This document shows positions 50,631 to 56,600 of a stretch of DNA of 64,000 nt, in pieces. The position numbers and the translations under genes are program-made. This stretch comes from Tubulanus polymorphus (lineage: Eukaryota; Nemertea; Palaeonemertea; Tubulaniformes; Tubulanidae). Location: positions 3,398,485-3,462,484 of the forward strand of contig NC_134027.1 of the NCBI RefSeq assembly GCF_964204645.1, given 5' to 3'. Each line of letters opens with the position of its first letter. Position 1 is the stretch's first letter. Under the pieces are notes generated by a model. It did no database searches and had not been told where the DNA came from. It saw only the letters and a list, made by a program, of their open reading frames with translations.

Positions 50631-50638
50631 ATGCTTAA
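50600..50638 (+). promoter_or_regulatory. Upstream ORF overlapping the receptor start codon
   Basis: ATG at 50600 opens a 12-codon frame ([12 protein letters not shown]) whose TAA at 50636-50638 lies just inside the main coding sequence that begins at 50631. The frames differ, so translation of the uORF would pass the main ATG; this may reduce receptor translation. Confidence 0.5.
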
Positions 50639-53600
50639 GTTGATAGCAATGTTGCTATGGCTGACTATGGTTGATCCATTCGTCACAGCCAGATGTCTCA
50701 ATCAAACAGGTACGGTATGCGGCATTTTTACCGACGTAACAATTTGTTTTTGATAATCGACGACCTTGATTGATAGAATTGAGTTATCTTTATAGTGGTT
50801 AAGAGGCCGCGTTACTTCTTCCCGTATGATCAGGATAAGGAAGCGATTAAGCTTGAAAGCAGCACGCGTACATCTCACTTGCTCGCTAATTCTGTGCTGA
50901 AGATTTTACTGGAGGAAGTTGTCGGCTACGCTGAAGTTTACATCGCTACTGTGGCTGACTCCATCAATGCCACGAAAGTAATGAACCGCATTGCTGGCTG
51001 CACGGAAGTTGAGTAAGTTTGACACATTGCATTAGAAGACTAGCATGTCTTTTATCAATATCGGTATTTCTGCTGTGTATATATTTTCTTATTTGAAGTC
51101 GTTGAAATTTGATGGATTCCGGTCCGTCAAATTTTAGTAGAACTCATGTTATCATTAGGTTTCACTAGCACATCTGAACATTAGATTTAGATCTTAGCCT
51201 AATATTGGTTGATTCTTTCGTGTCAGACACTAAACATATGCAGCTATAGTGCCACATTACAGATATATTATTTACGATATGCATCAATTTGTGTTTAATT
51301 TGCTCAAATGATATCAATCTCGACATAAAAACGCACGAGAAAATTCTTCCCAGCTAAAATGATATACCCGATATCAAGTATTTTGATTGGAATTCTATGC
51401 AATTATAATACAAATACATGCATATTCAGTGCTTTTATATTTAGCTTATTCAGCTTAATTAACATTTCTATCTTTAGGTCAAGAAGGTCAACATATCAAC
51501 CATACATAAGGCAATACTATATATTTATATATAATATATAGTTATACATATACATATATTATAGGTTGATGTGTGATTTATATTTATTGTGTTGATTATT
51601 TGGGCGATCAATCCTTACCGTTCTAATAGTTCCATCACATGTTTCAAATTAAAAAAAAAGCGATAAGGATTTGTCGTTGGAACCCTTCGTCGTTAAATGT
51701 CTCAAATGCTTCAATTGTAAAATGTGATCATTGAATCCTATTTGTTATCTCTATGAACTGTTTACAGATTATTTGACTTACTTCTGAATAGCTTTTCTAT
51801 TACTCGAACGATACTGGTGAAAATTAAGCAAAACTTCCTGGAACCTTTCACATTTTTTGTTTGAATTTCTGTATAGTGAATGATTAACTATTCTGAATTG
51901 GTCGTCTTATCTTTTATGGTATTCATATGAGAGACGGATCCTGGGGCCAATTTCGAAGAACTTCACATCCCAAAAATGTTAGGTGTTCTCCCATATTTGA
52001 CAAAATGAAAAAAGGCACTCAAAAGAATTTCAAGGACGAGTCCCTCTGGATCCGCCCCTGTCTATATATATATATATGTATTTACGCTTATAATAACTAT
52101 GCAGCTTGCTTTGCTAATCTTCAGCGGTTTAGAGCGGCCTTCTACTGCATACTACCATTGGAACAGCATAAATAAGTTTTCACCAAAGTTTGTATCAATC
52201 GGAAATGTTTTTCTTTACTTTTTCTTCACTCAATGTTTGCCCTCTTTTTCTTTCACCGCCCTCACCCTGTTCTATAAGCCACGATCACGCGGAGTCGATT
52301 TGGCCCGGGCCAAATTGGCACGGATCAGGCTCGGTCCAAATATGGCCCGTGCCTAATTAGAGAGCGCGTTCACACATAAACCATTCACTCGATACTAAAC
52401 AATGCTCAAACAAAGCGAAGTGGATCATTTCCGATGCCAGTTGCAATTCAAACGCAATCATTTGTCTGGTGCTAAAATTTGACTCGGGGCCTGGTCCGAC
52501 GTTTTTGGTCGGGCCAAACAGGCTCGGGCCCATTTGGCACCCGTGTGAACAGTTGGACCAAAAATGCTCGTGTGATCGCGGCTATACTGTAGTGTGTGTA
52601 GCATCAAAACTAGTTAAATAAATGATCGAGTTCACTACGATAGAATATATTACAAATTCTCTGAATCGAATCATTTATTTTTAGTTTAAGATGAATCTTG
52701 AACACGTAATGCACAGGTTTGAATCGTAAAAAGTATTTCGCGGCTGTATTTGTTCATTCATATATCAAACTTTTGCATTTCGGTAGCAGACGTCAATGCT
52801 CTATTTTAGAAAAGGCATGACAATTAACCTGCTACCTTGATCAGTATTGATCAGTAAACGTTGATTTGTCCGCGGTGTATGTTTCCTCTATCTCATGTTA
52901 ACCTACACATCTTCTACATGTAACTAATATAACTACAAAAGTGCACAATATTTAAAATGATATTAAAACAGACTCAGAGAACGAACAGCATCGACAGATC
53001 TATTCAGGCAGCAAATTTATTTCACTCGTTTTGTAATACTTTCGTGTCTTATCAGAAGCTGGTACATGAATGTCAAAATAGGCCAGACTGAAAAAATATG
53101 TTGACATTTTCACAAGTGAAGTGCTTTACTTACAAATGTCACATTACATCAATGTGTTACATATTATGATATTTATTATGTACTCCTCTTGAGATTTGAA
53201 ATATGAAATGTATGTTTACTTATTCAAAACCAACTTCAGATAACATTTTTCCAGAACTTACCCTTCCATCACCCAAGAGTTTTGTCCAGTTGTAAACACA
53301 TTAAATAGACGCTACTAACTTCATTGTTTGCTATGATTATTTCCCTATTGAATTGTCCTCGTCAGGGTTTTGTCCACCTTTTTGTGGGTCGGGTGTGTTT
53401 GTCTATGGATTGGTGTTAATTTCATCCAAAAATATGAGAAATTAGAGAAATTCTGAGTAATAATGCATTAGGTTATTCATATCATAAAGTGAACTATCTG
53501 TAAGTTGTGAAGTAGATTATTCAAAGCCTGACAGATTGACCCGCAAATCTTGTAGTTTGAACTTTGAAATAATTTGAAAGTATTTGTTATTCCAAATGAG

Positions 53601-56600
53601 TCATACTTGTTTTCGTATGATTTTAGATGCCGTAATCGAATAAACTCATCAAAGACCGTACCAGTTACGATGGTGAATCTAGAAGTATGGATGATGCCTG
53701 GATTTAACGTCGAATCATGGGTCAGCAGTGGATACCTGATCGACTGCGGTCCGCTGGGGCCGAATGCTCGATTTGGTTGGTTTCAACCGACGTATATGGT
53801 CATTAAATTTTGGAAAGAGAAGAAATTGATTGTCGATCATTGGCGAGCGTTTCAGGAATATTCAATCTCTGAACAGTATTCATTGGTAAGAGATTTCAGT
53901 GTGTTTATTACTACTGATTAATGATTCATCACTGACGGTTTCTCATTTTGTTTGAATTTTAGAAGTCACAACGCGATAGATTGCGTCAACTAGTGAAGTC
54001 GGGTAGTCCGACTGATCCGTATCATTGTCAGGATACTGACTGCGTTAATGGTATCTTGTACGGTCCTGGATGTAATACGACAAATGAAGATCGATGCGCT
54101 TTACTTTTCAGTAGTACTCCAGGTAAAAATCATTTTTCCAGATATTGAAAATGTGTTTGCTTAAAAATGAGGATATCGAATGTTATGTCCTTTTTTTAGA
54201 GCTCGATATGGGAATACTGAAAAAACAGATTATCAACTTCCAAATGCACGTGAACATAGCCTGGATTGGAAACAACCTAACGTCATACGTGACCGAACAA
54301 ATCAAACTCGGTAATCCGATACTGTTCTTCAGCTGGCAACCAAATACGTTTACCGCGTACAACTTCACGCGTATGAAGTTTCCGCTTTGTACCGAGACTC
54401 AACACGGAAAACCGATAGACTGTGATTTTGAGATTAACCAGCTTACGAAGGTCGTGTGGTCGCGTTTAAAACGCAACGCACCCGAGGCTTTCCATTTAAT
54501 CAATAATATCGAATTCAAACAGCAAACGTACCAGGATATTATCGACAAATATCGAGATATGGAAGCGAAACGTAGCTCGATACAAGCGCATGAGGTAGCG
54601 TGCGAATGGGTGAGGGAAAATAAAGATATCTGGAAGCACTGGATACCGCCTGATTTAACGAATAAGACAAAGATCTATCTGGGAGGAATGTTTCCATTGA
54701 CTGGTCGACATTGGACGGGCCCCGGTCTCCTGCCTGGTAAATCTTATTCCATCTTACCATTAATATCATCGAAGAAATTTGAAATATCATTCGTAAACTT
54801 GTCGATGTATTTTCTTGTAGCTGTTCATATGGCAACTGATGCCATAAACCAAAACTCAACAATTCTAAGTGATTATTCATTAGAGGTATTAGTTACGAAT
54901 ACGCAATGCGTGAGTAAAGCTGCCATGAAAGCATTCATTAGTTATGTCACTAATACAACGCACAAAATTGCTGGAATACTCGGTAAGTAAAAGCCAAAAA
55001 GATCGTAAAACTTTGTGAGGAGAATTTTGGCGTTTTCAAATTGGTTTCTATTAATGTGTTCCAGGTCCTGCTTGTTCCGAGGCTGCTAAAACTGTAGCTA
55101 GTATGGCAACTCCATTTAACACAATTGTTCTGAGCTATGGTGCAGAATATCCGGTTCTATCAAAATCTAAAGACTATCCGAATTTCTTCCGTACTGTCCC
55201 ACATATTGGACAACATGGGTAGGAAATTTCTCTCATGGAATATGATGATGAAATTGGAGCTTCCTAGTACATTTATGATCTATATTTGGCATTCTAGTCT
55301 GGTCTATGCTGAAGCGTTCAAGGTATTGGGTTGGACGCGTGTTGGTCTACTGATTGAACGCGATGTCTATTCATTCATGCAACATTCGTTAGAAAGCTTC
55401 GGAATAAATGTAGTCGAATATATAAACATCCCTAAAACACATTCGTTCGATGCAAGTCAGGTAAGAAAAAGTTTAACGGAATAGAGAAAAATCAGTCTTT
55501 AAGAATTGGCATAAGATATCTTTCATTCGGTATTGAATTTCTATAATTTTTCGATTGAATCTTCTTTCATTGTATCTGTTAATATCAAATGTATGAATCG
55601 GATTGTTTTGTTCAGTAACCTGAATAAGTTTAACTCAAGTGAATCTGGATTGGTTGTTCTCTTTGAATTACATGTGGTTTAAGATTATAGTTGTATAGAT
55701 GATAAATGTGTGATTAAAGTGATCGAAGTGGATTTAAGATTTCTGCATGTTCTCGCCGCCATACCGGATGACATGGCATACACACACACCCCTGCCTACT
55801 TCAGATATTAAAGGGTTTTATGTTTGTGTTTGTCATTAATTTCTGTCCGTCGCGAGTGTTAATGACTTCTGCCTCCTATTTCTTTACCCTCAGAATATTC
55901 AGGTTACAAATGAGTATCTCACATCGGTAAGACATGACCTCGAATTCTTTAAAACACAAATTCAACATCACCGTTCTGTTGACAATGTGTTTGTAAGAGA
56001 ATGTCAACCACTATTTACTCTTTTTCTCGCTTTTACCGAAAAGTTATCAACCCGTTTTTAAGCATTCACTTGACACCTCAAAACCTCTGGGATAGTAACG
56101 TAGCTCCATCCTCCCTCGTGTGCCAACAACACCTAGACTGAAGGTGAAAGAATTTACCCTACCTGCATTCATTAAAGTACCTGTAGATGTAATCTGATCC
56201 CTTATTCCTTGAACTGGTTGTTTCTGCAGTGTTGTTAGTGTTCAAAGATCAATCTTTATTTACTAGGGTAGCCACTGACCTGGACAATTTGGAATCAGGG
56301 AAAACTCAAGGAATTTGGCAAATTTTACTGAAAACTTGGAAAAACTCAGGGAATTCGCATAAAATGCTATTGACCACATGTTTCTTTATAAGTACGTGAT
56401 TCAATGAAAAACGATTCACTCGAGACATTTTGTGTCGTCAAATGGACAAATCTGGGAAAACTCCTGGGTTTTGTAAATTGGCCACCCTGTTATTGGAATT
56501 AAAGCGTTAACTCCCCCTTAGGTTTTGAGTCAGTGTTAAGTGAACCATTTATGTATAGAATTTAGGATTTGGATGCTTGCTTACTTGTCGCTCTGCCGTG

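What the first reader, a model, noticed from the sequence alone, without database searches (positions are those of the whole stretch)
50631..54736. Receptor tyrosine kinase with a bacterial-type OpuAC domain fused ahead of its Venus flytrap
Residues about 28-390 of the receptor align by eye with the ABC-transporter glycine-betaine/choline binding fold: a lLEe-vGY segment, a vnlEvWmpg segment, GplG-ar-GWfqPtY, and [12 protein letters not shown]. This precedes the usual ANF/GABA-B-like flytrap, so the ectodomain would carry two different periplasmic-binding folds on one insulin-receptor-like kinase. Described VKRs that I know of have one flytrap module. The arrangement suggests two ligand sites, perhaps for a quaternary amine and an amino acid. 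The kinase and flytrap identification is established family knowledge; the dual-sensor idea is inference.
Basis: partly seen in the sequence, partly recalled or inferred. Interest (0 to 1): 0.85.

Follow-up and report, generated by a model that had tools for sequence, protein, structure and literature searches.

The report
Insulin-receptor-like kinase with two flytraps
An animal cell-surface receptor of a kind described with one molecule-catching "flytrap" here carries two, the outer one built like a bacterial nutrient-binding protein, which gives a fresh place to look for the disputed ligands of this receptor family.

Summary
An 18-exon animal gene (50631-60925, +) encodes a 1,353-residue venus kinase receptor (VKR): signal peptide, ~370-residue N-terminal domain, GABA-B-like flytrap, one transmembrane helix, insulin-receptor-like kinase. 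The N-terminal domain is a whole OpuAC-type (PF04069) solute-binding protein: Pfam 24.8 bits alone (cut-off 21.2; 20.5 in the full protein); profile-profile E = 3e-19, with control pieces, 100 shuffles and the reversed sequence far lower. Exon 5 alone encodes the end of one flytrap and the start of the other. Two haplotypes differ by 14 synonymous and 0 non-synonymous codons.

Two binding folds: yes. A quaternary-amine sensor: unproven and weakened. Two of four cage tryptophans stay (W120, W284); the others become R51 and perhaps Y218, and the ligand-binding Glu becomes F148.

It is probably not peculiar to this species: residue numbers printed for Schistosoma, Anopheles and honeybee VKRs imply, by my estimate, 330-425 residues ahead of their flytrap. 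I propose an overlooked second flytrap across VKRs, which makes the arginine-versus-neurohormone ligand question testable. Full sequences of other VKRs were not available, and structure prediction could not be run.

The parts
50631..50709 (+). exon 1: start codon, signal peptide ([20 protein letters not shown])
   Evidence: signal peptide judged by eye from the hydrophobic stretch
50796..51012 (+). exon 2: OpuAC-like domain, first part (aa 27-98; R51 at the TmoX W55 position)
53627..53885 (+). exon 3: OpuAC-like domain (LEVW with W120; [10 protein letters not shown] with F148)
53963..54122 (+). exon 4: OpuAC-like domain, with cysteines C207, C212, C222 in columns that are gaps in all 90 bacterial rows
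54200..54736 (+). exon 5: last ~155 residues of the OpuAC-like domain (to about 54669) and, in the same exon, the start of the ANF/GABA-B-like flytrap ([12 protein letters not shown], from about 54670)
   Evidence: (Peripla_BP_6 match starts at aa 397)
54821..58319 (+). exons 6-12: GABA-B-like venus flytrap (ANF_receptor, aa 416-766), with Ser476 of the GPACSE motif
58532..58670 (+). exon 13: juxtamembrane and single transmembrane helix (about aa 842-860)
   Evidence: hydropathy
58751..59974 (+). exons 14-17: insulin/IGF1-receptor-like tyrosine kinase, most of the domain ([23 protein letters not shown])
60298..60925 (+). exon 18: end of the kinase, cytoplasmic tail and stop codon

Best explanation
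This is a venus kinase receptor whose ectodomain has two ligand-binding domains in series: a membrane-distal type II (OpuAC/TmoX-class) solute-binding domain and a membrane-proximal type I (GABA-B-class) flytrap, on one helix and an insulin-receptor-like kinase. Shown by sequence: the gene model, homology over the whole OpuAC-like domain, and its joining to the flytrap inside one exon; haplotype differences are consistent with purifying selection. Inferred: the outer domain is a working second sensor or allosteric module. Its closing around a small ligand, or its binding a partner, changes the packing of the receptor dimer and tunes how the inner flytrap (amino acid, by family precedent arginine) switches on the kinase. 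Its pocket is remodelled (W120, F282, W284, F148, perhaps Y218, plus R51), so I expect a ligand other than plain betaine, choline or TMAO, possibly one with a carboxylate for R51. The same module is probably present, unrecognised, in other VKRs.
For: Gene model of 18 exons, no stop in 1,353 codons. Pfam OpuAC above cut-off for the N-terminal part. Whole-domain profile match E 3.3e-19 with controls. tblastn into plasmids at E <= 10: 61 records; of the 30 listed, all 19 that carry an annotation under the match are ABC-transporter substrate-binding proteins and 11 carry none. A profile of 11 of those relatives finds solved TmoX, DmpX, OpuAC, ProX and ChoX. Cys302 and Cys313 each match a Cys in 88 of 90 bacterial rows. 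Haplotypes: 14 synonymous, 0 non-synonymous codons; exons differ at 14 of 4,062 bases, introns at 67 of 6,223; 7 of the 14 lie in exons 1-5. Kinase best matches IGF1R, INSR close behind, and the Schistosoma VKR2 kinase 7zvs lower in the list at 3.4e-79; flytrap best matches GABA-B1. Room for the same domain in other VKRs: the conserved flytrap Ser is 476 here, 466 and 410 in SmVKR1/2 (PMC4038586, passages), 505 in Anopheles (PMC6401105, passages); the Asp of DFG is 1057 here and 1031 in Apis (PMC2680970, passages).
Against: No ligand data. In the receptor, one cage Trp is Arg, another is Tyr or missing and the pocket Glu is Phe; of 39 columns at least 95% conserved in the bacterial rows it keeps 18, so ligand binding may be lost. 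The Pfam score for the full protein is under the cut-off and no single solved sequence matches significantly (best E 0.023). No structure model: the predictor was busy at every attempt. No RNA. Wider presence in VKRs rests on lengths alone, not on sequences.
Confidence: 0.6

Rival explanations
1. The OpuAC-like domain has lost small-molecule binding and serves as a structural, dimerisation or peptide-docking module; for instance it could be the site where arthropod VKRs meet the neurohormone OEH.
For: Pocket residues W55, E131 and W177 of TmoX are replaced or missing; receptor-specific insertions with extra cysteines (C95, C100, C207, C212, C222 lie in columns that are gaps in all 90 bacterial rows); the mosquito VKR is reported to bind the hormone OEH, and the review ascribes this to the one flytrap it knows (PMC4522560, passages; PMC5601475, passages).
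Against: W120, F282 and W284 of the pocket, the shared Cys pair and W383/W386 are kept; all codon differences between haplotypes are synonymous, though that holds for any functional domain. Neuroparsins such as OEH are reported only from arthropods (PMC4522560, passage), and the animal here is unidentified.
Confidence: 0.3
2. One reading: an intact quaternary-amine (betaine/choline/TMAO) sensor with the classical aromatic cage.
For: Solved relatives of the bacterial profile include binders of TMAO, DMSP, glycine betaine and choline (TmoX also the best single match, E 0.023); two cage Trp and an aromatic at F220 kept.
Against: The TmoX W55 column is W in 88 of 90 bacterial rows (2 gaps) and Arg here; the E131 column is E in 87 of 90 and Phe here; the W177 column is W in 89 of 90 and Tyr here, or unpaired by hhalign. 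An Arg in the cage position does not suit a bare quaternary amine (inference).
Confidence: 0.08
3. Artefact: two neighbouring genes wrongly joined, or bacterial contamination.
For: Introns 2 (2.6 kb) and 8 (1.7 kb) are long; no RNA was available.
Against: One exon encodes the end of the first domain and the start of the flytrap; all borders are GT/AG in phase and preserved in a second haplotype; the domain is split by introns, and its branch in a 26-row tree is very long (5.9).
Confidence: 0.02

Closest known systems
Venus kinase receptors (VKR; SmVKR1/2, AmVKR, AgVKR, LgVKR, CtVKR)
   Same: GABA-B-like flytrap with the conserved Ser in GPACSE, a WFLPxWL motif, one transmembrane helix, INSR/IGF1R-like kinase with YY.
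   Different: The passages and sections of VKR papers that I saw describe one flytrap ahead of the membrane; here a second, OpuAC-type one is identified. Their residue numbers leave room for it.
OpuAC/ProX/TmoX/DmpX/ChoX solute-binding proteins (PF04069)
   Same: Whole-domain homology, equivalents of TmoX W102, F220 and W222, a Cys pair, the C-terminal W..W pair.
   Different: About 15-27% identity to the 90 bacterial rows; altered pocket; extra insertions; tethered to a receptor instead of serving an ABC transporter.
Allomyces class C (glutamate-family) GPCR-like proteins with an OpuAC domain (PMC3251606, passages)
   Same: A eukaryotic receptor-type protein with an OpuAC domain in its N-terminus.
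   Different: Fungal seven-helix receptors, not kinases; the passages do not say that OpuAC and an ANF flytrap stand in series.
ABC transporter permease chains with a fused OpuAC domain (PDB 7ahc)
   Same: OpuAC domain covalently tied to a membrane protein.
   Different: Transport, not signalling (recalled).

Membership tests
Venus kinase receptor | class C/GABA-B-like flytrap in the ectodomain | tested here: met
   ANF_receptor E 1.4e-52; GABA-B1 best solved match E 3.8e-45
Venus kinase receptor | insulin-receptor-like tyrosine kinase with catalytic motifs and YY pair | tested here: met
   PK_Tyr E 8.4e-89; IGF1R best and IGF1R or INSR in most of the first 43 rows, one chain labelled EGFR (9p9u) third, SmVKR2 kinase 7zvs at 3.4e-79, 60 of 455 matches shown; motifs placed
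Venus kinase receptor | single transmembrane helix between them | tested here: met
   all of the 12 most hydrophobic 19-residue windows start at aa 833-847
Venus kinase receptor | conserved Ser for the amino-acid carboxylate | tested here: met
   Ser476 in GPACSE, same motif as the Anopheles S505 primer sequence, translated by hand
Venus kinase receptor | placement in the VKR clade by phylogeny | not tested
   no full VKR sequence was at hand; only the 7zvs kinase was seen, in a listing
OpuAC domain (PF04069) | Pfam score over the curated cut-off | tested here: met
   24.8 bits over 21.2 for residues 1-396; but 20.5, just under, in the whole protein
OpuAC domain (PF04069) | homology along the whole domain | tested here: met
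   282 aligned columns, E 3.3e-19; exons 2-4 alone 1.2e-5
Betaine/TMAO/choline-binding protein (function) | complete aromatic cage and polar partner | tested here: not met
   W120, W284, F282 kept; R51, F148 and Y218 (or a gap) stand for W, E, W
Betaine/TMAO/choline-binding protein (function) | binds the ligand | not testable with these tools
   needs expressed protein
Type II periplasmic-binding fold | two-lobed structure | not tested
   Structure prediction was busy at every attempt

The most novel reading that the evidence does not exclude
The whole VKR family, from cnidarians to insects and flatworms, carries an ancient, overlooked OpuAC-type second flytrap ahead of the known one; VKRs are double-flytrap receptors, and the outer trap is the second ligand site behind the conflicting reports of arginine, calcium and neurohormone activation.
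Probability: 0.4. Interest if true: 0.85.

Novelty: new variant of a known kind. Interest (0 to 1): 0.72.

Why it matters
VKRs are tied to reproduction in schistosomes and in Aedes mosquitoes (in Anopheles, silencing did not change fecundity but hit larval growth; PMC6401105, passages), and their ligands are unsettled: arginine, calcium and a large neurohormone have each been reported and ascribed to the one known flytrap (PMC4522560, passages; PMC4038586, passages). A second binding domain gives a separate candidate site that can be expressed, deleted or mutated, and it would join the two great classes of periplasmic-binding fold in one animal receptor kinase.

Tried and rejected
Searches for other animal VKRs in viral contigs (N-terminal part; flytrap plus kinase) found none. 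In the own genome PF04069 rang nowhere at E <= 0.001, not even on this gene, so that search cannot exclude other divergent copies. The N-terminal protein matched only this locus and its haplotig (10 of 10 matches, 10 candidates scored), so no paralogue gives a second view. Recent transfer from bacteria was considered and set aside: the domain has introns and the longest branch, 5.9 changes per column, in a tree with 25 of the 90 bacterial sequences; that tree is rooted at the midpoint for drawing only, warns of long branches and does not place the domain. Fusion artefact was rejected by exon 5. Primer sequences printed in two VKR papers were looked at for N-terminal peptides and gave nothing useful; a third keeps its primers in a supplement that was not read, and a fourth was not looked at for primers after a failed call. 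Paper searches: OpuAC with guanylate cyclase, 0 papers; with metazoa, 2; with tyrosine kinase, 4; glycine betaine transport with venus flytrap, receptor and animals, 1; venus kinase with betaine, 0; receptor tyrosine kinase with periplasmic binding protein and choanoflagellate, 1. None of these listings shows, by title or abstract start, a paper on an OpuAC domain in a VKR. A broader search returned 7,414 papers and its 25 listed rows never mention OpuAC, so it says nothing. That covers the held open-access library only; domain databases such as InterPro were not searched. Rows dropped: of 61 plasmid records 13 were fetched, of which 11 made profile A1 (L046 and L053 left out); L053 was left out of the 91-row alignment because its layout differs, and L057 because its translation held stops, so 90 bacterial rows were counted. 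One search labelled two pocket columns one place off; one search has the right ones. W177 is paired with Y218 by MAFFT but is unpaired in hhalign.
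Full report
What is there. The window lies in a genome of 268 Mb in 77 contigs; that it is an animal is my reading of the genes. On the + strand an 18-exon gene runs from 50631 to 60925; all 17 introns are GT..AG and in phase, and the 1,353 codons hold no stop. The product has a hydrophobic leader (by eye), a domain of about 370 residues, an ANF_receptor flytrap (E 1.4e-52), a transmembrane helix near 842-860 and a tyrosine kinase (E 8.4e-89).

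It is a VKR. The kinase matches IGF1R best in the PDB, with INSR close behind, a chain labelled EGFR third and the Schistosoma VKR2 kinase 7zvs lower down at 3.4e-79 (60 of 455 matches shown); the flytrap matches GABA-B1 best. [22 protein letters not shown], the GPACSE serine (476) and a WFLPGWL motif are present, in line with the features in the VKR survey (PMC3703292, abstract and Results section read).

The N-terminal domain. Pfam gives OpuAC 24.8 bits for the N-terminal 396 residues, over the cut-off of 21.2, and 20.5 in the whole protein, just under it; only residues 268-377 are aligned. The best solved sequence is TmoX, the TMAO-binding protein 4xz6, at E 0.023, not significant alone. 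tblastn against 72,556 plasmid records finds 61 records at E <= 10, the lowest E among the 30 listed being 1e-4; of those 30, 19 carry an annotation under the match and all 19 are substrate-binding proteins, 11 carry none. Thirteen were fetched. Eleven made the profile A1, and the receptor domain matches it from residue 37 to 396, E 3.3e-19, probability 99.2. Exons 2-4 alone give 1.2e-5. In a script: real score 130.9, exon-5 part 107.2; own flytrap 15.8, own kinase 12.9, reversed 21.3, best of 100 shuffles 31.1. A1 in turn finds TmoX (4e-126), DmpX 7yle (1e-59), OpuAC, ProX and ChoX in the PDB (the short names of these entries are partly recalled). So this is a whole solute-binding domain, not a stray motif.

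One gene, apparently under selection. Exon 5 (54200-54736) holds the last ~155 residues of this domain and the first 22 residues of the flytrap, so the two are not separate genes. A second copy on the 244-kb contig C13 is 99.07% identical over 11.8 kb and looks like the other haplotype. Exons differ at 14 of 4,062 bases, introns at 67 of 6,223 aligned bases (summed by hand); all 14 codon changes are synonymous, 7 of them in exons 1-5. If about three quarters of random changes alter an amino acid, seven of seven silent has a chance of roughly 6 in 100,000, by my own arithmetic. The domain matches only these two copies (10 of 10 matches), though PF04069 did not ring on this gene in the same genome, so divergent copies could be missed. 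The flytrap matches closely only here and on C13; other flytraps are 20-40% identical.

The pocket. The TmoX pocket is W55, W102, F106, E131, W177, F220, W222, and that of DmpX is similar (PMC8918994 and PMC10030565, passages). The alignment has 90 bacterial rows: 12 from plasmids and 78 from a genome scan that found 550 relatives of a three-sequence query and kept the best 80 (L057 dropped for stops, L056 as a repeat of L051, and plasmid L053 dropped for its layout). The matching columns are: W55 -> R51 (W in 88, gap in 2); W102 -> W120 (W in 90); E131 -> F148 (E in 87); W177 -> Y218 (W in 89; unpaired in hhalign); F220 -> F282 (M in 80, Y, W or F in 10); W222 -> W284 (W in 86, Y in 4). TmoX F106 has no counterpart. 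C302 and C313 each match C in 88 of 90. Of 39 columns at least 95% conserved, 18 are kept. The rows are mostly one subfamily of marine Pseudomonadota, so these counts describe that subfamily more than all of PF04069. The picture is of a kept domain and a remodelled aromatic pocket with an arginine in it: a changed ligand or none, rather than a standard betaine site.

Is it special to this animal? The printed position of the essential flytrap serine is 466 in SmVKR1 and 410 in SmVKR2 (PMC4038586, passages) and 505 in Anopheles (PMC6401105, passages), against 476 here, where the flytrap starts 80 residues earlier. The honeybee DFG starts at 1031 (PMC2680970, passages) against 1057 here. If the spacing is alike, these VKRs have about 386, 330, 425 and 370 residues ahead of the flytrap. 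The gene table of PMC3703292 likewise puts the flytrap after the first three exons in Lottia and Capitella (E4-E10 and E4-E11), but from E2 in Nematostella and most Drosophila, so the exon counts alone do not settle it. The passages and sections that I saw name one flytrap. That the extra stretch is an OpuAC domain in those species is inference.

How it may work. By family precedent the inner flytrap closes on an amino acid, the dimer tightens and the kinase fires (PMC4026697, passages). The outer domain sits farthest from the membrane along the chain. I think it most likely a second sensor or allosteric module; the main rival is a docking or dimerisation role without a small ligand. Mosquito (Aedes) VKR binds the large hormone OEH, which the review ascribes to the single flytrap (PMC4522560, passages); a second domain offers another site. 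A fungal precedent for OpuAC in receptor N-termini exists (PMC3251606, passages).

Limits. No RNA, no other full VKR sequence, no structure model (predictor busy at eleven tries), no ligand data. In a tree with 25 of the bacterial rows the receptor domain has a branch of 5.9 and an unsure place.

Noticed in passing
window 20214-20567 and 23050-23562 (-): Exons of an SLC6-type sodium:neurotransmitter symporter (SNF, E 5.1e-20 and 1.2e-54) on the opposite strand.
   Followed up: no
window 30875-32299 and 32766-33326 (+): C2H2 zinc-finger exons with many fingers, CTCF-like by recall.
   Followed up: no
window 38272-38619 (+): WW-domain exon (E 2.9e-9), PCIF1-like by recall; the frame at 39310-39786 gave no Pfam match.
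   Followed up: no
window 46669-46911 and 47293-47685 (-): Two WWE-domain exons (E 4.1e-17 and 3.6e-7), perhaps of a PARP-type gene (recall), upstream of the receptor on the other strand.
   Followed up: no
window 56293-56473, 59396-59420 and 60020-60113: Six copies of a 25-base unit like AATCAGGGAAAACTCAAGGAATTTG (the other five 76-92% identical to the reference copy) inside introns 8, 15 and 17 of the receptor, perhaps pieces of one dispersed repeat.
   Followed up: partly
G000:C2:26027168-26045167 (-): Dense cluster of ANF-type flytrap reading frames on one strand, perhaps a tandem array of receptors.
   Followed up: no
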